A DNA stretch of 54,217 nt from Clostridia bacterium (GTDB lineage Bacteria; Bacillota; Clostridia; Oscillospirales; CAG-272): the NCBI GenBank assembly GCA_017451735.1, contig JAFTNU010000014.1, positions 1 to 54,217 on the forward strand. The letters run 5' to 3'. Below the pieces are notes generated by a model that searched no databases, was not told where the DNA came from, and saw only the letters and a program-made list of their open reading frames with translations. Every line of letters begins with the position of its first letter. The stretch's first letter is position 1. This document shows, one piece after another, positions 8,052 to 51,456 of this stretch. The translations under genes were made by a program, and so were the position numbers.

Positions 8052-8074
8052 ATAAAGCCTATGCTTCTCCCGAC

Positions 8075-8170
8075 ATTCCCATATCAGGCATCCCTACGTT
8101 GGCATTATCCAAATCAGGTTCTCGGTCGAAGGTCGCACCTTCCTCTCAGCCTGTATACAAGCTCCCGTTT
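8075..8170 (-). ncRNA. TPP riboswitch (THI element) aptamer
   Basis: Read on the minus strand, the leader contains the invariant core blocks CTGAGAG, ACCTGAT, TGGATAATGCC and CGTAGGGA in the right order, with the 5' strand ACGGGAGC at its start. These are the conserved parts of the thiamin pyrophosphate aptamer. It lies between the promoter and a terminator hairpin ahead of thiS, so bound TPP should favour early termination of the whole thiSFGHEDC transcript. Exact outer stem ends are approximate. Confidence 0.95.
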
Positions 8171-8186
8171 ATTTTGTTGTGAGTGT

Positions 8187-46635: not shown

Positions 46636-47004
46636 TCAGGAAGAACTCATATTGCTACGGACCATTGCCAAATATTCTTTAAACTTTGATTCGGGAAGAA
46701 CTCCTTCGGTTTTTTGAATCATTTCTTCTTTACTGATTTCTTTATATTCATAATCATGCTGAAAGTTTGAGAAAGAAATATGACAATCTTTCCATTGCTT
46801 TGTCTCGGGAATGTACATAACAAAAAATTCAGTATGTTTTTCATGTGCTAGTAAAAAATGATTCTGTAAGTCTTCATAATATTTTATGTTTGGCATAATA
46901 CTCATTCCATCCATATTTGTTTCCGCCCTTGCTTTTCTTAGATATGTTAACCATGACTGCTGTAAATGAATTTGTCCCATCATTTTAAGGTATATTTTCG
47001 ACAT
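46636..47004 (-). CDS. hypothetical protein
   Basis: A 122-residue basic and aromatic-rich protein with no domain I recognise. The region before MDGMSIMPNIKYYEDLQ may not be original: it lies inside a repeat shared with two other places (see the repeats at 46942, 48038 and 49390), and the ATG overlaps the serine hydrolase stop by one base (TGATG). A later in-frame ATG near the MDGM residues could be the native start. AT-rich compared with the operon to the left. Function unknown. Confidence 0.5.
   Translation of the reverse strand: MSKIYLKMMGQIHLQQSWLTYLRKARAETNMDGMSIMPNIKYYEDLQNHFLLAHEKHTEFFVMYIPETKQWKDCHISFSNFQHDYEYKEISKEEMIQKTEGVLPESKFKEYLAMVRSNMSSS
46942..46972. repeat. dispersed repeat R1
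   Basis: On the minus strand CATTTACAGCAGTCATGG then TTAACATATC. Almost the same as R2 at 48038 and less so R3 at 49390. Here it lies inside the 5' part of the unknown gene at 46636. Confidence 0.75.
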
Positions 47005-48020
47005 CAATTCAGATCTGCCCTGATTGCAGCATGAATATCGTGGCGCATTTGAATTACATCACAATATTTTTCTTTGCCGTGTTTTTTGACCGTGCTTGCG
47101 GTAGCATCAGATAGAATGATTACATATAACCCGCTCTTGGGATCGACAAATACCGATTGACCCGTGTGACCGCAATGACCAATGCTTCCCGTCGGGAAGA
47201 GCCCTCCCGTTTGTAAATAACGGTCATCAACGTACAGATAACCCAATCCGCGCGCTTCGTCCATGCTTTCGGTTTGATTTTGCGTAGCTAATTCAAAAGT
47301 ATGCTTGGAAAACAGCGGAGCACCGTATGCGAGCAATAATTTTGCGTACATTGTCATATCCGCAAGATTCGAGAACAAGCCCGCATTACCGCAAACTCCG
47401 CCAAGATAACGGCAATTATAATCATTGACAATTCCCTTTTCGTCTTCGTACAAATTGGCATTTACAATATCTTTTGCCCTCTCCGGCAAAAAAACGGATG
47501 AATTCATTCCCAAAGGCATTGCAACGTATGCATAAAATGCCGCATCAAGCCTTTTTTGAAAAATAGTTTCCAATATACGGCCAAGCAAGATAAATCCGGG
47601 ACAGCTATATCGTACATTTGTACCTATCGGAATATCTGACGGAATATCCAATATGTATTCTTGAATGTCATCATATACACCATTACTCCCAAGGAGCGAC
47701 TTGTGCCCTATTCCCATCGTATGGGTCAACAAATGCCTTACCGTAAGATTTTTCTTGTCCTCCGGTACGGAAAAGAATTTGCCTACAAAATCGGATGGAG
47801 AAAGCATCCCTTTATCAATCGCAATCAGTGCCAATGAGGTTGTCACAACGATTTTAGTTACCGATGCCATATCAAACAACGTCTGATCGGTAAGCACCCT
47901 GCTCTGCGCAGAGTTCTTAATTTCAAAAATAACGTCATCCTTTCGCCCTACCCTGACGATGATATTCTCAACGGTTTTATCCTCAATCAACTTTTTTACA
48001 CAATTCTCTAAATATTGCAT
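47004..48020 (-). CDS. serine hydrolase (beta-lactamase/class C family)
   Basis: A 338-residue penicillin-binding-protein fold. The nucleophile motif SVTK lies at S53-K56, the second motif reads YSC (family YxN), and the third is HTG within GHCGHTGQS. RHLLTHTMGIG is also typical. There is no signal peptide, so a cytosolic esterase or peptidase is more likely than a beta-lactamase. The ATG follows GGGGAG that belongs to repeat R2. The gene lies in the AT-rich mosaic region between repeats. Confidence 0.85.
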   Translation of the reverse strand: MQYLENCVKKLIEDKTVENIIVRVGRKDDVIFEIKNSAQSRVLTDQTLFDMASVTKIVVTTSLALIAIDKGMLSPSDFVGKFFSVPEDKKNLTVRHLLTHTMGIGHKSLLGSNGVYDDIQEYILDIPSDIPIGTNVRYSCPGFILLGRILETIFQKRLDAAFYAYVAMPLGMNSSVFLPERAKDIVNANLYEDEKGIVNDYNCRYLGGVCGNAGLFSNLADMTMYAKLLLAYGAPLFSKHTFELATQNQTESMDEARGLGYLYVDDRYLQTGGLFPTGSIGHCGHTGQSVFVDPKSGLYVIILSDATASTVKKHGKEKYCDVIQMRHDIHAAIRADLN

Positions 48021-48308
48021 TTATGTGAGTTCTCCCCTCGATATGTTAACCATAGCTGCTGTAAAATGGACTTTCAAGTTTTGCTCGAAATCATAACACT
48101 CTTTCAGTGCAATTTGAAATTTATTGATAAAGTCTGCCTTGCTTGCGGCATAGTTTGCTTCGTGAATATTTGCACCAATGCTGGTACCGCTGCGCAAAAC
48201 TTGGTTTAATAGCACATTGCTTTTTCTGTTTTCTTTTATATCAGTGCAAAGATTGACGATATCAACCGCAAAGTGCTTCGATAACTCGACAAGAAAATTT
48301 TCTTTCAT
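48021..48308 (-). CDS. four helix bundle protein, C-terminally truncated
   Basis: A 95-residue protein whose first 70 residues match the four-helix-bundle (23S rRNA intervening-sequence) family: FAVDIVNLCTDIKENRKSNVLLNQVLRSGTSIGANIHEANYAASKADFINKFQIALKECYDFE. The family normally runs to about 115-120 residues with a last helix rich in Trp and Leu. Here the frame enters repeat R2 after LKECYDFEQN and stops, so the last helix has been lost. The function of the family is not known; truncation suggests past recombination at the repeat. Confidence 0.75.
   Translation of the reverse strand: MKENFLVELSKHFAVDIVNLCTDIKENRKSNVLLNQVLRSGTSIGANIHEANYAASKADFINKFQIALKECYDFEQNLKVHFTAAMVNISRGELT
48038..48080. 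repeat. dispersed repeat R2
   Basis: On the minus strand AAAGTCCATTTTACAGCAGC then TATGGTTAACATATCGAGGGG. It ends the four-helix-bundle frame and supplies the ribosome binding site of the serine hydrolase. About 27 bases nearly match R1. Confidence 0.75.
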
Positions 48309-48333: not shown

Positions 48334-48505
48334 TGACACTTCGTGTCATGAATTGATGCTCGCAAGCTCGCATCATGATTTCTCGCGCTATCGCGCTCCA
48401 TGAATTGAATTGCGCGCCCAACCTTATGCGCCCGCAGGCGCAATTCATGGCGAAGCCAATTCATGAGTGCAACGCACTCAATTCATGCGCCCGCGCAATT
48501 CATTG
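48334..48505. repeat. mini-hairpin array A with AATTCATG linkers
   Basis: A run of small stem-loops: TGACACttcGTGTCA, CTCGCGC-type, GCGCCcgcaGGCGC, GGCgaaGCC, GAGTGCaacGCACTC and GCGcccGCG. They are joined by TGAATTG on the left and CAATTCATG on the right, so linkers on one half complement those on the other. The centre reads GCCCAACCTTATGC. No coding frame crosses it. Same design as array B at 49608 but with unrelated linker letters. Confidence 0.82.
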
Positions 48506-48615
48506 TCGAGTCGTCGTGTGAGACACACGACAGACTCTACATGTGTCAAGACTCCAAAAGGTATATTTACTGTTTCTTTTCCCGTCTTTTTGAATTGCGA
48601 CTTGCCTATTTATTT
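48484..48615 (-). pseudogene. serine recombinase C-terminal scar
   Basis: Read on the minus strand from 48613, this gives a frame ending HVESVVCLTRRLDNEL, which matches residues 548-560 of the recombinase at 49771 (THIESVVRLTRRDSN). Upstream of it is KDGKRNSKYTFGVLT. The catalytic parts are gone. Array A begins where the frame runs into its hairpins. It looks like a relic of a second element. Confidence 0.7.
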
Positions 48616-48625
48616 GATTGCTTTG

Positions 48626-49378
48626 TCAATCGCCGATAAACTTCCCATATTTTTTAATTATAGCTTCGCGTATCTTATCTTCAAGCATAGCGGCGTGGTC
48701 GTAATCTCGGCTCTCGTTCCATTCCTGCTTATCGTAGCTTGATGCCAGTCTGCGATACTCCGCCCTTAGCACTTCCTTCTGATCTTCTGTCAGATAGCGA
48801 AGCGGAGTTTTGCGTATGGTGTCCTCATCGCACCCGAGTTCCTCGCCTCTCTCGCGCATTTTTGCATAGTAAGCGTCAAGCAGGGGCTTTTCGTCTGCGG
48901 GAAGGTCCAGGCTTTTGAGTATCTCGTTATCACAAGGAGTCATATATTCAAGCGGCGTTGTTGAAAAAATCCAGTCTATTGTGAAATTCTCACCCGCTCG
49001 CAGCGTTTTGCGTGTTTCACCTGCATTAATTTTGGGTGGGCAGAAGGCGAAGTCGCCGCTTTCCCAGCCGTACCGGCTCTGGCAACAGCCGTGCATTTCA
49101 AAATCGCTGTCATTGCCGTAGGACATTTTTTGGCAGAAATTATTGTCTTCTAAAAGAGAAAGGAAAAAAGCTTTTGCTTCGGCACTTATGGCAACCTGTT
49201 CTACGCCGATCACAGAGGTCATATTCTCAAAAAGATCGTACTCGATAGGGAAGGTGAAGTGTTTTTTGCACGCCACTTTGAAAAAACTATGGCTGTCACC
49301 ATCTTCCTTCGCGGAATCGAAAACGAGCATATCCTCGCCGTTTTCGTCTTTGTCAAGGTAAATTTTTATGTAGATCAT
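48626..49378 (-). CDS. hypothetical protein (250 residues)
   Basis: A soluble, acidic protein with mixed helix and strand, MIYIKIYLDKDENGEDMLVFDSAKEDG at its start and a lysine-rich helical end. Cys occur in CKKHFTF and GCCQSRYG. No family recognised. A run KTPLRYLTEDQKEVLRAEYRRL suggests a helical tail. The ATG at 49378 follows AGAGG within repeat R3. AT-rich like its neighbours and likely acquired with the mosaic region. Function unknown. Confidence 0.6.
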   Translation of the reverse strand: MIYIKIYLDKDENGEDMLVFDSAKEDGDSHSFFKVACKKHFTFPIEYDLFENMTSVIGVEQVAISAEAKAFFLSLLEDNNFCQKMSYGNDSDFEMHGCCQSRYGWESGDFAFCPPKINAGETRKTLRAGENFTIDWIFSTTPLEYMTPCDNEILKSLDLPADEKPLLDAYYAKMRERGEELGCDEDTIRKTPLRYLTEDQKEVLRAEYRRLASSYDKQEWNESRDYDHAAMLEDKIREAIIKKYGKFIGD

Positions 49379-49389
49379 AGTTATTCCTC

Positions 49390-49436
49390 TCTGTATGTTA
49401 AAGATACCGCTATAAAATGAACTTTTGAGTTGCGCT
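49390..49436. repeat. dispersed repeat R3
   Basis: On the minus strand CAAAAGTTCATTTTATAGCG then GTATCTTTAACATACAGAGAGG. Similar to R1 and R2 in layout. It carries the ribosome binding site of the gene at 48626. Confidence 0.6.
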
Positions 49437-49495
49437 AAAAAGTAACATTTGTCCCTGTGCAAAATCAGGGCTTTTTTGATCTTGAACACTGTACT

Positions 49496-49576
49496 CGTAG
49501 GGGCGAACTGTGTTCGCCCGCATAATTGAGCGAAAATTTTCTTTTCGGGCGAACGCAGTTCGCCCCTACGGTGGCG
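49496..49576. repeat. 81-base long palindrome
   Basis: CGTAGGGGCGAACTGTGTTC plus GCCCG pairs with CGGGCGAACGCAGTTCGCCC plus CTACG, giving a stem of about 25 bp with few mismatches around a 30-base AT loop. Such GGGGCGAAC palindromes occur in many copies in gut Clostridia genomes by memory (not checked). MITE-like. Confidence 0.82.
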
Positions 49577-49607
49577 GTTATTGTTTTGTGAGACTAACGA
49601 CGGATTC

Positions 49608-49770
49608 CAATGTTGCGGCGAGCCGCAAATGATATTATGCTCCGCATAAATGATATTGGCTACGCCAAATGATATAGGTTTGCCCGTTCCTTTAATTTTC
49701 GCGCAAGCGAAATATAATTCGCGCAAGCGATATCATTGCCGAAGGCATATCATTTTGCCGTCAGGCAAAC
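49608..49770. repeat. mini-hairpin array B with AATGATAT linkers
   Basis: Stem-loops in order: TTGCGGCgaGCCGCAA, TATGCtccGCATA, TGGCtacGCCA, then TTCGCGcaaGCGAA, TCGCgcaaGCGA, GCCgaaGGC and TTGCCgtcaGGCAA. Left-half units are joined by AATGATAT, right-half units by ATATCATT, the exact complement. AGGTTTGCC (49675-49683) can also pair with GGCAAACCT (49762-49770). The array ends at the recombinase stop codon. Confidence 0.85.
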
Positions 49771-51456
49771 CTAATTCGAATCTCGTCGCGTGAGACGCAC
49801 GACGGACTCGATGTGTGTATCGTTGTCCAAACCTATTTTCATATCTTCCTCTATGATCGGTAGCTTGAATTTGATGGATTTCAGCCACTGTCCGTTCGGT
49901 TTTCGTTCTTCAAAAATATGGATTTCGGAGATCAGCGATTCCATGAGCTGTCGGCGTTCCGCATCATCCATCACAGCGTACAGTCTGTCAAAGTAAATCA
50001 ATACCTTGTAGATATTATCGGCTGTCAGCTTTTCAGCTTCGATTACCGTTTTCTTTGCTCTGGCTTCAATTAGCAATGACTCCGTATCCTCAATTTTATC
50101 ATACATCTTGTAAAGGCGATCATCAAGGTCTGCCTTACGTTTGATGTAGTGTTTATCATCGGGATCGAGTGTGTCAATTTCTTCAAAGAGTCTTGACTTG
50201 ATGGAATAACACTGGCGGAGTTGCTTTTCGTAGTTTGCAATCTCTTGTTCGATAGCAGCGGTGTCCACCTTCATGCTGATTTTTTGTTGCATCAACGATG
50301 CAAACCGCGGGTTGCTGACTAACTTTGTGATAACCTCTGCCACAGCAGTTTCCAAAAGCTCTTCATGAATTTGCTTCTTATAATCACATTTATGCCCACG
50401 CGTCATTGTACGGTGTTTGCAGCCATAGTAATAGAAGTCCTTATATTTTGTGCCATCTGGTTTGTGTTTGACACTCTTGTTTCCATACATACCTGCTCCG
50501 CAAATCGGACATTTGAGTAAACCGGTCAACAGATGAACTTTATTATCTTTACCGCGATTAACCTTCTCGTATTTTTTTGCTTGCGCAAGAAGCTTTACTT
50601 GTGCCTCATGCCAGAGTTCTTCGGAAACAAGGGCTTCATGCAGACCATCGACCAACAAGTAATCGTCCTGTTCTACAAGGCGATAGTCATTTCTTGTACC
50701 GTGCACCTTTTCCGTTCTGCGTCTACCATAGGCTATTTTACCACAGTAAACAGGATTTTTCAATATCCTGCGAATAAGAGCCGCATCAAACAGAGGATTT
50801 TTTCCGTTCTGCCGTTGAATTTTGCCGATTCCGTGATTGGCAAGGTATCGGGCGAGTCCGTTTGCACCCATGTCGGTATGCACATACTTGTCAAAGATGA
50901 TACGAATTGCCTCGGCTTCTTCCTCATTTACGAACAGATTGCCTTTTTCAAGCGTGTATCCGTAGGGGGCAAAGCCTCCATTCCATTTTCCCTCGCGAGC
51001 TTTCTGTATTCTGCCCTCCATCGTCTGAACACGAATGTTTTCACGCTCAATCTCAGCGACTGCTGACAGAACGGAGATCATCAACTTTCCTGCATCCTTT
51101 GAGGAATCGATACCGTCCTCAACACAAATCAGATTGACACCAAAATCTTGCATTACCTGCAAGGTGGACAACACATCTGCCGCATTTCTGCCAAAACGGG
51201 AAAGCTTGAATACCAACACATATGAAACACCGTCCTTGCCGGATTTGATGTCCTCCATCATACTGTTGAACTCTAATCTTCCCTCGATGGACTTACCGGA
51301 TTTACCGGCATCCTCATACTCGCCGACAATTTCATAGTCGTTAAACTCGGCAAACGCTTTCATTCTGGCTTTTTGAGCATCCAAAGAGTATCCATCCACT
51401 TGTACCGTGGTGGATACTCTCGTGTAAATATATACTTTTATCTTGTCTTTTTTCAT
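49771..51456 (-). CDS. large serine recombinase
   Basis: A 561-residue site-specific recombinase. Residues 1-150 are the resolvase domain with catalytic Ser15 in YTRVSTTVQVDGYSLDAQ and the LVFKLSRFGRN block. The recombinase domain follows (about 165-270, with GKWNGGFAPYGYTLEKG and RILKNPVYCGKIAYG), then a zinc ribbon with CPICGAGMYGN and CKHRTMTRGHKCDY, a long coiled coil and a C-terminal VESVVRLTRRDSN. GAGG precedes the ATG. The enzyme looks complete and able to act. Its 3' end touches hairpin array B. No other genes of an integrative element are seen beside it, so it is a solo or cut-down unit. Confidence 0.95.
   Translation of the reverse strand: MKKDKIKVYIYTRVSTTVQVDGYSLDAQKARMKAFAEFNDYEIVGEYEDAGKSGKSIEGRLEFNSMMEDIKSGKDGVSYVLVFKLSRFGRNAADVLSTLQVMQDFGVNLICVEDGIDSSKDAGKLMISVLSAVAEIERENIRVQTMEGRIQKAREGKWNGGFAPYGYTLEKGNLFVNEEEAEAIRIIFDKYVHTDMGANGLARYLANHGIGKIQRQNGKNPLFDAALIRRILKNPVYCGKIAYGRRRTEKVHGTRNDYRLVEQDDYLLVDGLHEALVSEELWHEAQVKLLAQAKKYEKVNRGKDNKVHLLTGLLKCPICGAGMYGNKSVKHKPDGTKYKDFYYYGCKHRTMTRGHKCDYKKQIHEELLETAVAEVITKLVSNPRFASLMQQKISMKVDTAAIEQEIANYEKQLRQCYSIKSRLFEEIDTLDPDDKHYIKRKADLDDRLYKMYDKIEDTESLLIEARAKKTVIEAEKLTADNIYKVLIYFDRLYAVMDDAERRQLMESLISEIHIFEERKPNGQWLKSIKFKLPIIEEDMKIGLDNDTHIESVVRLTRRDSN

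What the first reader, a model, noticed from the sequence alone, without database searches (positions are those of the whole stretch)
48334..49770. Two mini-hairpin arrays with private, self-complementary linkers
Arrays A (48334-48505) and B (49608-49770) are built alike: five to eight short, different stem-loops, each separated by a fixed short linker. In A it is TGAATTG/CAATTCATG, in B AATGATAT/ATATCATT. In both, the linkers of one half are the complement of those in the other half, so the whole array can fold back. The two have almost no sequence in common apart from a CCCnnCCTTnA-like centre, so the architecture, not the sequence, is conserved. Such designs are unlike simple REP or MITE elements. 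Idea: a DNA or RNA structure read by a protein, or a substrate of a recombinase or reverse transcriptase. Seen: letters and pairing. Inferred: a role.
Basis: partly seen in the sequence, partly recalled or inferred. Interest (0 to 1): 0.85.

Follow-up and report, generated by a model that had tools for sequence, protein, structure and literature searches.

The report
Hairpin arrays of S23-protein mobile elements
Both hairpin arrays look like parts of a small mobile DNA family that many related bacteria carry, in which a custom hairpin array stands before a gene for a small protein of long-unknown function, often next to tRNA genes or inside transcription-stop hairpins.

Summary
Arrays A and B are the upstream half of a recurring module: [first hairpin][linker/hairpin array][PF05635 '23S rRNA intervening-sequence protein' gene (IVP/S23, four-helix bundle)]. 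A lies 25 nt before a truncated IVP gene; B has lost its IVP. In relatives, 92 of 187 IVP genes have such an array within 420 nt upstream, against 3 of 172 control windows; 20 other stretches of the own genome (344,706 bases) have none. Each array uses one linker, direct in one half and inverted in the other; 12 linker classes were named, and the class follows the neighbouring IVP (nearest-relative agreement 77 of 85, shuffled mean 8). The array's 5' end pairs with its centre in 75 of 85. Of 80 modules with enough flank, 44 lie 30-88 nt behind a tRNA or tmRNA gene; three elements of one class, the ones read at both ends, split a terminator stem. Empty sites exist. Best reading: a hairpin-targeting mobile element without a recognised transposase, whose array is the cognate binding platform of its own IVP. 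Binding and movement are inferred. Nine searches of open-licence papers listed nothing like it.

The parts
48334..48505 (-). Array A: mini-hairpins with private linker ATGAATTG / CAATTCAT
   Evidence: same linker class and layout in L165, L176, L221, L332
48406..48416 (-). P1 helix of array A, arm in the array centre (pairs with 48492-48502)
   Evidence: I5, 11 nt, 100%; P1 in relatives:
48492..48502 (-). P1 helix of array A, arm at the array's 5' end in module orientation
   Evidence: I5
48508..48537 (-). First hairpin of module A: an rlmD 3'-end sequence followed by its own inverted copy
   Evidence: fold; equivalents in L165 and L176
48021..48308 (-). IVP/S23 four-helix-bundle gene of module A, truncated (95 aa; relatives about 117 aa), 25 nt from the array
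   Evidence: PF05635 E 3.5e-15; TIGR02436 E 1.1e-17; lengths
47004..48020 (-). Beta-lactamase-family gene immediately downstream of the IVP gene (Pfam fold family; cargo or resident not decided)
   Evidence: PF00144 E 7.7e-38
49608..49770 (-). Array B: private linker AATGATAT / ATATCATT; no IVP gene follows
49675..49684 (-). P1 helix of array B, arm in the array centre (pairs with 49764-49773)
   Evidence: I18, 10 nt, 100%
49764..49773 (-). P1 helix of array B, arm at the array's 5' end, overlapping the recombinase stop codon
   Evidence: I18
48518..48537 (-). 20-mer copy 1: rlmD (rumA) 3'-end sequence beside array A
49588..49607 (-). 20-mer copy 2, on the far side of array B
49790..49809 (-). 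20-mer copy 3, coding for the recombinase tail ...ESVVRLTR
49771..51456 (-). Large serine recombinase, CcrB-like; its 3' end carries the rlmD-type sequence
   Evidence: NF047343 E 2.7e-60, below that model's cut-off; relatives differ at this tail
49496..49570 (.). Palindrome pair CGTAGGGGCGAAC..., roughly where the IVP gene would be; also in L013
   Evidence: placement by eye
48626..49378 (-). Gene between arrays B and A, no Pfam match
   Evidence: (scanned as the longer ORF 48626-49726)

Best explanation
A and B are the cis-acting arrays of IVP (S23) mobile elements. SHOWN by sequence: array and IVP gene form a recurring unit; each unit has its own linker, repeated direct then inverted; hairpin stems differ but stay paired; the array's 5' end pairs with its centre; units lie behind tRNA genes, at rlmD ends or inside terminator hairpins; two pairs of near-identical units have different left flanks; empty and partly decayed sites exist. 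INFERRED: the linkers are binding sites for the cis-encoded IVP, whose only sequence relative found in the PDB is a five-chain entry, so several linkers could be gathered on one protein ring; the array acts folded on the coding strand (as RNA or as single-stranded DNA); the complex delivers or protects the element while it is joined, by host or trans-acting enzymes, into hairpin-forming DNA such as terminator loops and tRNA ends. In the window both copies are decayed (IVP truncated at A, absent at B) and lie in a chain of rlmD-end repeats beside a CcrB-like recombinase.
For: Association: 73 of 94 IVP loci hold an array (82 arrays in 283 kb) versus 10 detector hits in 869 kb of 80 recombinase loci, of which by eye only L020 is a real array, itself IVP-linked; 61 of the 82 end 6-110 nt before the IVP start and 9 more overlap the called start. 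92 of 187 IVP genes versus 3 of 172 control windows; 0 arrays in 344,706 own-genome bases. Unit: of 159 pairwise matches of 500 nt or more, 99 end within -30..+20 nt of the IVP end and 111 begin no more than 90 nt before the first linker; 76 do both, 15 run on past the IVP. Cognate: linker class of the nearest IVP relative agrees in 77 of 85, shuffled mean 8, largest 18. P1: at least 8 bp in 75 of 85 versus 7.9% of 680 pairings with other-class centres. Loops: C(GNA)G in 53 of 72 (first half) and 38 of 76 (second half) triloops when oriented by the linker. Coding-strand folding: G.T 41 vs A.C 13 mismatches, p = 1.8e-4. Sites: tRNA/tmRNA end 30-88 nt upstream in 44 of 80 array-IVPs versus 2 of 91 array-less IVPs. 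Mobility: L119/L147 (98.7% over 1.35 kb) and L114/L118 (99.0% over 629 nt) differ in their left flanks; L147, L141 and L122 split terminator stems; G075 holds the empty terminator of the L141 site; at the tRNA-His locus G000 is filled, G641 empty, and G097 keeps only part of an array. Ring: 2rld, 5 chains, E 1.5e-29.
Against: No binding or movement has been measured. Linker-IVP agreement could be co-inheritance within one short unit: with relatives of 65% identity or more removed it falls to chance (6 of 85). 95 of 187 IVP genes showed no array; 54 of them are under 50% identical to any array-bearing IVP, but 23 are at least 60% identical, so some close relatives lack an array or escape the detector. 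P1 also forms, at 8 bp or more, in 62% of 670 pairings with centres of the same class from other loci, so part of its support is common descent. No RT or Y1 enzyme is associated, so the joining chemistry is unknown. The mirrored GNA loops suggest DNA units on both strands, while the G.T excess suggests one folded strand; the two are not reconciled, and the G.T excess could come from strand-biased mutation. The right ends of tRNA-type elements were judged by eye only. The gene after the IVP at the own tRNA-His locus is a resident gene, so cargo carriage is not general; three other genus members (G646, G637, G640) have longer inserts there without a detected array or IVP.
Confidence: 0.55

Rival explanations
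1. RNA-protein module without its own mobility: the array is transcribed as the leader of the IVP mRNA, IVP binds it and controls its own synthesis and that of the next gene (in layout like a type III toxin-antitoxin repeat array upstream of its protein).
For: Arrays mostly directly upstream of IVP; coding-strand G.T excess; the next ORF starts on the IVP stop in 21 of 75; repeat sequence private to each protein.
Against: Loop and linker orientation flips between the halves, which a single RNA does not need; arrays without IVP persist (array B; G097); a terminator-like hairpin often lies just upstream (by eye); units with different flanks and inside terminators; no PADLOC match for two IVPs.
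Confidence: 0.2
2. Passive passengers: the units are non-autonomous inserts moved by a known recombinase in trans (serine recombinase, tyrosine integrase at tRNA ends, or an IS1272-like enzyme that targets terminator hairpins); the array is merely its substrate and IVP is accessory.
For: Terminator-hairpin insertion resembles IS1272/TnSha1 (PMC4923244, passages read); inverted ends TCTCATAAGGAAGT / ACTTCCTTATGAGA in L147 and L141; tRNA 3' ends and rlmD ends are classical attachment sites (recalled); array B touches a serine recombinase.
Against: Very different sites (15 tRNA kinds, tmRNA, rlmD, protein-gene terminators) carry the same kind of unit; no relation to Y1 or RT genes; the serine recombinase of the window is rare (7 of 196 family genomes). 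IS1272-like transposases and tyrosine integrases were not searched for.
Confidence: 0.2
3. Chance or mutational palindromes: repeats kept paired by quasi-palindrome correction, with no function.
For: Stems are mostly perfect although their sequences differ.
Against: Linkers shared by both halves and class-specific, P1, placement upstream of one group of proteins, 0.03 arrays per shuffled window.
Confidence: 0.03

Closest known systems
23S rRNA intervening sequences (IVS) with S23 ORF
   Same: Small elements coding for the same protein family (PF05635/TIGR02436); IVS replace the tetraloops of rRNA helices 9/25/45, that is, they also sit in hairpins (PMC4990558, abstract and passages seen).
   Different: At tRNA, terminator and rlmD ends instead of in rRNA; a linker-hairpin array precedes the gene, whereas the passages seen describe a 28-bp terminal stem for the Coxiella IVS and mention no such array.
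REP/BIME/REPIN elements with RAYT
   Same: Hairpins with a short foot motif in direct and inverted copies, cognate to one protein (recalled).
   Different: No association with Y1 transposases (none in the own genome); the motif is private to each unit; stems within one array differ.
IS1272 / TnSha1
   Same: Insertion into terminator hairpins with part of the hairpin removed and no target duplication (PMC4923244, abstract and passages).
   Different: Encodes a transposase; the passages seen mention no hairpin array and no IVP.
Integron gene cassettes
   Same: Several structured sites with small genes between them in clusters such as L215.
   Different: Arrays precede a gene for an IVP; attC structure and integron integrase were not searched for.
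Type III toxin-antitoxin (ToxIN)
   Same: Private repeat array directly upstream of a small protein gene (recalled; abstract start of PMC5772629 seen in the listing).
   Different: IVP has no match to a toxin or nuclease model in the searches made; repeats are half inverted with unlike stems.
SCC elements (CcrAB)
   Same: CcrB-like large serine recombinase whose 3' end matches the 3' end of an rRNA methyltransferase gene, with tandem copies.
   Different: rlmD instead of rlmH (the latter recalled); scores below the CcrB cut-off.

Membership tests
23S rRNA IVS | codes for an S23/IVP four-helix-bundle protein | tested here: met
   for module A; absent at B
23S rRNA IVS | located inside a 23S rRNA gene helix | tested here: not met
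   tRNA, terminator and rlmD contexts; no rRNA match in the window
23S rRNA IVS | insertion in a hairpin loop | tested here: met
   three elements of one linker class read at both ends split a terminator stem (L147, L141, L122); empty site in G075. Not tested at the window copies or for other classes
23S rRNA IVS | excision from precursor RNA by RNase III | not testable with these tools
   needs RNA
REPIN/RAYT | dependence on a Y1 (RAYT/TnpA) transposase | tested here: not met
   PF01797 absent from the own genome; 35 of 88 IVP genomes vs 19 of 58 others
REPIN/RAYT | many copies of one shared palindrome per genome | tested here: inconclusive
   no further array in 344,706 own-genome bases, but single palindromes were not counted genome-wide
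Diversity-generating or retro-element with Avd | reverse transcriptase partner | tested here: not met
   PF00078 absent from the own genome; 21 of 88 vs 15 of 58
Integron | integron integrase and attC sites | not tested
   no search made for IntI or attC
Type III toxin-antitoxin | ToxN-like endoribonuclease | tested here: not met
   IVP matches only PF05635/TIGR02436 above cut-off; PADLOC none for two IVPs
Type III toxin-antitoxin | RNA repeats bind the protein | not testable with these tools
   needs a binding assay
Known structured RNA (Rfam 15) | match to a covariance model at gathering score | tested here: not met
   the only match in the window is a TPP riboswitch at 8074-8178; relatives' arrays were not scanned

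The most novel reading that the evidence does not exclude
S23/IVP proteins of this group are sequence-specific readers of private linker-hairpin arrays, and together they form a class of mobile elements without a transposase of their own that insert into DNA or RNA hairpins (terminators, tRNA ends, rRNA helices), of which the classical 23S rRNA intervening sequences are one branch. The linker code (12 classes named here) would be an evolvable protein-nucleic acid specificity code.
Probability: 0.3. Interest if true: 0.92.

Novelty: categorically new. Interest (0 to 1): 0.82.

Why it matters
The S23/IVP family is known from rRNA intervening sequences, whose functionality and origin are called unclear (PMC4990558, passage seen). 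A cognate array next to the gene gives the protein a concrete ligand to test, and a set of natural linker-protein pairs with which to map specificity. Insertion into terminator stems, with an orthologous empty site, links rRNA intervening sequences to a wider habit of targeting hairpins. If the complex drives insertion, it would be a mode of DNA mobility without any recognised transposase. If it does not, it is still a family of structured arrays, found upstream of half of the IVP genes read in relatives of this genome, that Rfam 15 does not match in the window.

Tried and rejected
Serine recombinase as partner of the arrays: attractive because B abuts it, but the 80 recombinase loci L013-L092 gave 10 detector hits, of which by eye only L020 is a real array, and that one also has an IVP gene; the 20-mer repeats turned out to be copies of an rlmD 3' end.

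Reverse transcriptase or Y1 transposase in trans: no association. Rfam: no match in the window. PADLOC: no match for two IVPs. Arrays outside the class: the 30 best phylum-wide IVP loci gave one unconvincing hit; of 19 further loci five had detector hits (L266, L272, L275, L282, L283), of which by eye only L266 (same order) looked related, with linkers but hardly any hairpins. Within the class, 8 of 30 best loci had detector hits, 7 of them with hairpins in at least half of the gaps.

'Cargo' as a general property: the gene after the IVP at the own tRNA-His locus is resident in relatives, so I dropped a general gene-cassette claim. Empty site for L147: three relatives share only the left gene; one of them (G125) has an intact hairpin terminator at that place, the others do not clearly.

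G.T/A.C test: a first count on linker-bounded units was too small to use (unit orientation: first half 0 vs 3, second half 2 vs 0); the larger count is.

Rows dropped: 7 of 92 arrays without a clear linker class; 12 array and 4 non-array IVPs without 250 nt of upstream flank; 12 of 193 loci gave no IVP domain long enough. Of the 82 arrays, 8 lie downstream of the IVP and 4 more than 110 nt upstream.

Papers: nine searches ran and none listed a description of such arrays; only listings and abstract starts were seen there, and the library holds open-licence PMC papers only. Two papers were opened, passages only.

Full report
OBSERVATION. Both arrays exist as described. The window contains exactly two arrays by a formal criterion (a 6-mer with at least two copies in each sense, at least five in all, one change of sense, spacing 10-90 nt); 30 dinucleotide shuffles of the window gave 0.03 on average. 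They fold far better than shuffles (z -5.3 and -3.3). Rfam has no match there.

SURROUNDINGS. Reading on the minus strand, the order is: large serine recombinase (49771-51456) - array B - 20-mer - palindrome pair - gene 48626-49378 - 20-mer - array A - four-helix-bundle gene (PF05635/TIGR02436, 48021-48308) - beta-lactamase-family gene. The 20-mer GTGAGACNNACGACNGANTC occurs three times, against 0.29 expected and 0 of 100 shuffles reaching three. It codes for the recombinase tail, and in L161, L165, L170 and L176 the same kind of sequence ends a methyltransferase-like ORF; the two that I scanned, L170 and L165, are rlmD/rumA (TIGR00479 E 3.2e-98 and 1.8e-100). The window is therefore a chain of rlmD-end repeats beside a CcrB-like recombinase. 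The arrays were the part still to be explained.

THE KEY ASSOCIATION. L020, a relative of the recombinase locus (titled a Clostridia MAG), has a third array with another linker (AACTTCAC) followed by an intact four-helix-bundle (IVP/S23) gene. I therefore searched for PF05635: 4 places in the own genome and 88 of 146 genomes of the family. Of 94 IVP loci taken, 73 have an array (82 arrays in 283 kb). Of the 82, 61 end 6-110 nt before the IVP start, 9 overlap the called start, 8 lie downstream and 4 further upstream. In 80 recombinase loci (869 kb) the same detector gave 10 hits, of which by eye only L020 is a real array. Twenty other stretches of the own genome, 344,706 bases, gave none. With class- and phylum-wide loci added, and a slightly looser rule, 92 of 187 IVP genes have an array within 420 nt upstream, against 3 of 172 windows placed 200-640 nt downstream (Fisher p 1.7e-28). 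Of the 95 IVPs without an array, 54 are under 50% identical to any array-bearing IVP, 18 are 50-60% and 23 are at least 60%; some of the last, such as L105, L120 and L124, show an array by eye. Hairpin arrays occur in several other families of the class (7 of 30 best loci) and not convincingly elsewhere in the phylum.

ANATOMY. (i) One linker per array, direct in the first half and inverted in the second. A search that looks only for direct repeats found at least two reverse-complement copies elsewhere in 82 of 132 regions, against 40 of 2,600 trials with scrambled words. (ii) Twelve named linker classes among 85 classed arrays, 10 of them containing TCAY; 2-6 linkers detected per half, most often 4 or 3. 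(iii) Stems differ between units (213 distinct among 242 hairpins). Oriented by the linker, triloops are C(GNA)G in 53 of 72 (first half) and 38 of 76 (second half), against 3 and 2 TNC; tetraloops are GNNA in 23 of 33 and 25 of 48. GNA and GNNA loops are, as I recall, unusually stable in DNA. (iv) The array's 5' end pairs with its centre: at least 8 bp in 75 of 85, against 7.9% of 680 pairings with centres of other classes and 62% of 670 with centres of the same class from other loci. (v) On the coding strand G.T exceeds A.C among stem mismatches, 34 to 13 in 478 hairpins (68 other mismatches; p 0.003) and 7 to 0 in 63 P1 helices (6 other); together p = 1.8e-4. This favours folding of the coding strand as RNA or single-stranded DNA. 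Points (iii) and (v) pull in different directions, and I leave that open.

COGNATE PAIRS. For 77 of 85 arrays the most similar IVP from another locus has the same linker class (shuffled mean 8, largest 18). With relatives of 75% identity or more removed it is 34 of 85, and with those of 65% or more removed it is chance, 6 of 85. Linkers thus change with the protein while the copies in an array change together. The simplest cause is recognition by the cis-encoded protein; co-inheritance alone cannot be excluded. The only PDB sequence relative found, 2rld, has five chains (E 1.5e-29).

SITES AND MOBILITY. Of 159 pairwise matches of 500 nt or more between array-bearing loci, 99 end within -30..+20 nt of the IVP end, 111 begin no more than 90 nt before the first linker, 76 do both and 15 run more than 20 nt past the IVP. 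Of 80 array-IVPs with enough flank, 44 have a tRNA or tmRNA 3' end 30-88 nt upstream (15 tRNA kinds plus tmRNA), against 2 of 91 array-less IVPs. L119/L147 share 98.7% over 1.35 kb and L114/L118 99.0% over 629 nt, yet their left flanks differ. In the three elements (all AATATCAC type) that I could read at both ends, the flanks are the halves of one terminator stem: L147 AAAACCCCTCCG / CGGAGGGGTTTT; L122 AAAAACAGACCTCA / TGAGGTCTGTTTTT; L141 less perfect. The relative G075 has the L141 site without the element, as one intact terminator hairpin between the same two genes (76% identity). At the tRNA-His locus of the own genus, where 15 loci were fetched, G000 is filled, G641 is empty (terminator, then the same gene at +167), G097 keeps linker-hairpin units but no IVP, and G646, G637 and G640 have longer inserts without a detected array or IVP. 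There the gene after the IVP is resident, so no general cargo claim is made, although ORFs after the IVP are very diverse (75 of 85 elements have one of at least 55 aa).

MECHANISM. Most likely the array is the binding platform of the cis-encoded IVP, and the complex serves the movement of the unit into hairpin-forming sites. Shown: unit, linker-protein agreement, P1, sites, empty sites. Inferred: binding, the folded form, and the joining step. Reverse transcriptase and Y1 transposase genes show no association (21 of 88 vs 15 of 58; 35 of 88 vs 19 of 58), and the own genome has neither. Chief rivals are an RNA-protein regulatory module and passive mobilisation by a recombinase in trans.

COMPARISON. 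It works most like a cross of 23S rRNA intervening sequences (same protein family, hairpin target; PMC4990558, passages) and REP/REPIN elements (hairpin plus foot motif, cognate protein; recalled). It is a member of neither: not in rRNA, no Y1 transposase. Terminator-hairpin targeting has a precedent in IS1272/TnSha1 (PMC4923244, passages). Nine searches of the open-licence library listed no description of such arrays.

WINDOW COPIES. Both are decayed: A's IVP is 95 aa with an unrelated tail (relatives about 117 aa), and B has no IVP, with a palindrome pair in about that place, as in L013 (by eye). They are good markers of the family but poor candidates for experiments; L125, L123 or L119 are better.

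Noticed in passing
window 48518, 49588, 49790: Three direct copies of an rlmD (rumA) 3'-end sequence, one inside the tail of a CcrB-like large serine recombinase: an SCC-like integration site at rlmD. Two Streptococcus phage records with a 53%-identical recombinase are named '_rum'.
   Followed up: partly
window 49496-49570 and L013 7688-7764: Palindrome pair CGTAGGGGCGAAC...GTTCGCCCCTACG in a similar place in two genomes; looks like another small mobile palindrome.
   Followed up: no
window 48040-48110, 49392-49460; L013 7800-7880; L165 and L176 after the IVP stop: A similar leader (TTTTGAGC..ACTC.AAAGT..TTTTACAGC...TAACATATCGAAAGGAG) precedes several unrelated genes in these chains (by eye).
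   Followed up: no
   Followed up: partly
L358-L364, L370 (tRNA-His locus of the own genus): Repeated units of roughly 150-200 bp, several ending in a copy of the tRNA-His 3' end plus a terminator (by eye).
   Followed up: no
L134, L156, L158, L168, L185, L266, L321: Variant arrays with repeated TTATTCATTATTCA-like linkers and few hairpins; the tRNA terminator itself seems to act as first hairpin and the centre copies its 3' arm in several. Perhaps a simpler form.
   Followed up: partly
L155, L172, L303: Related ORFs (MIGxxVxVxVDRPxGS) follow IVPs of three different linker classes: shuffling between module and following gene.
   Followed up: no
L063 5537-5781: Seven copies of TGTTGTA in mixed sense with long palindromes between; an inverted-repeat array of another kind.
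   Followed up: no
window 8074-8178 (-): TPP riboswitch (RF00059, 57.2 bits).
   Followed up: no
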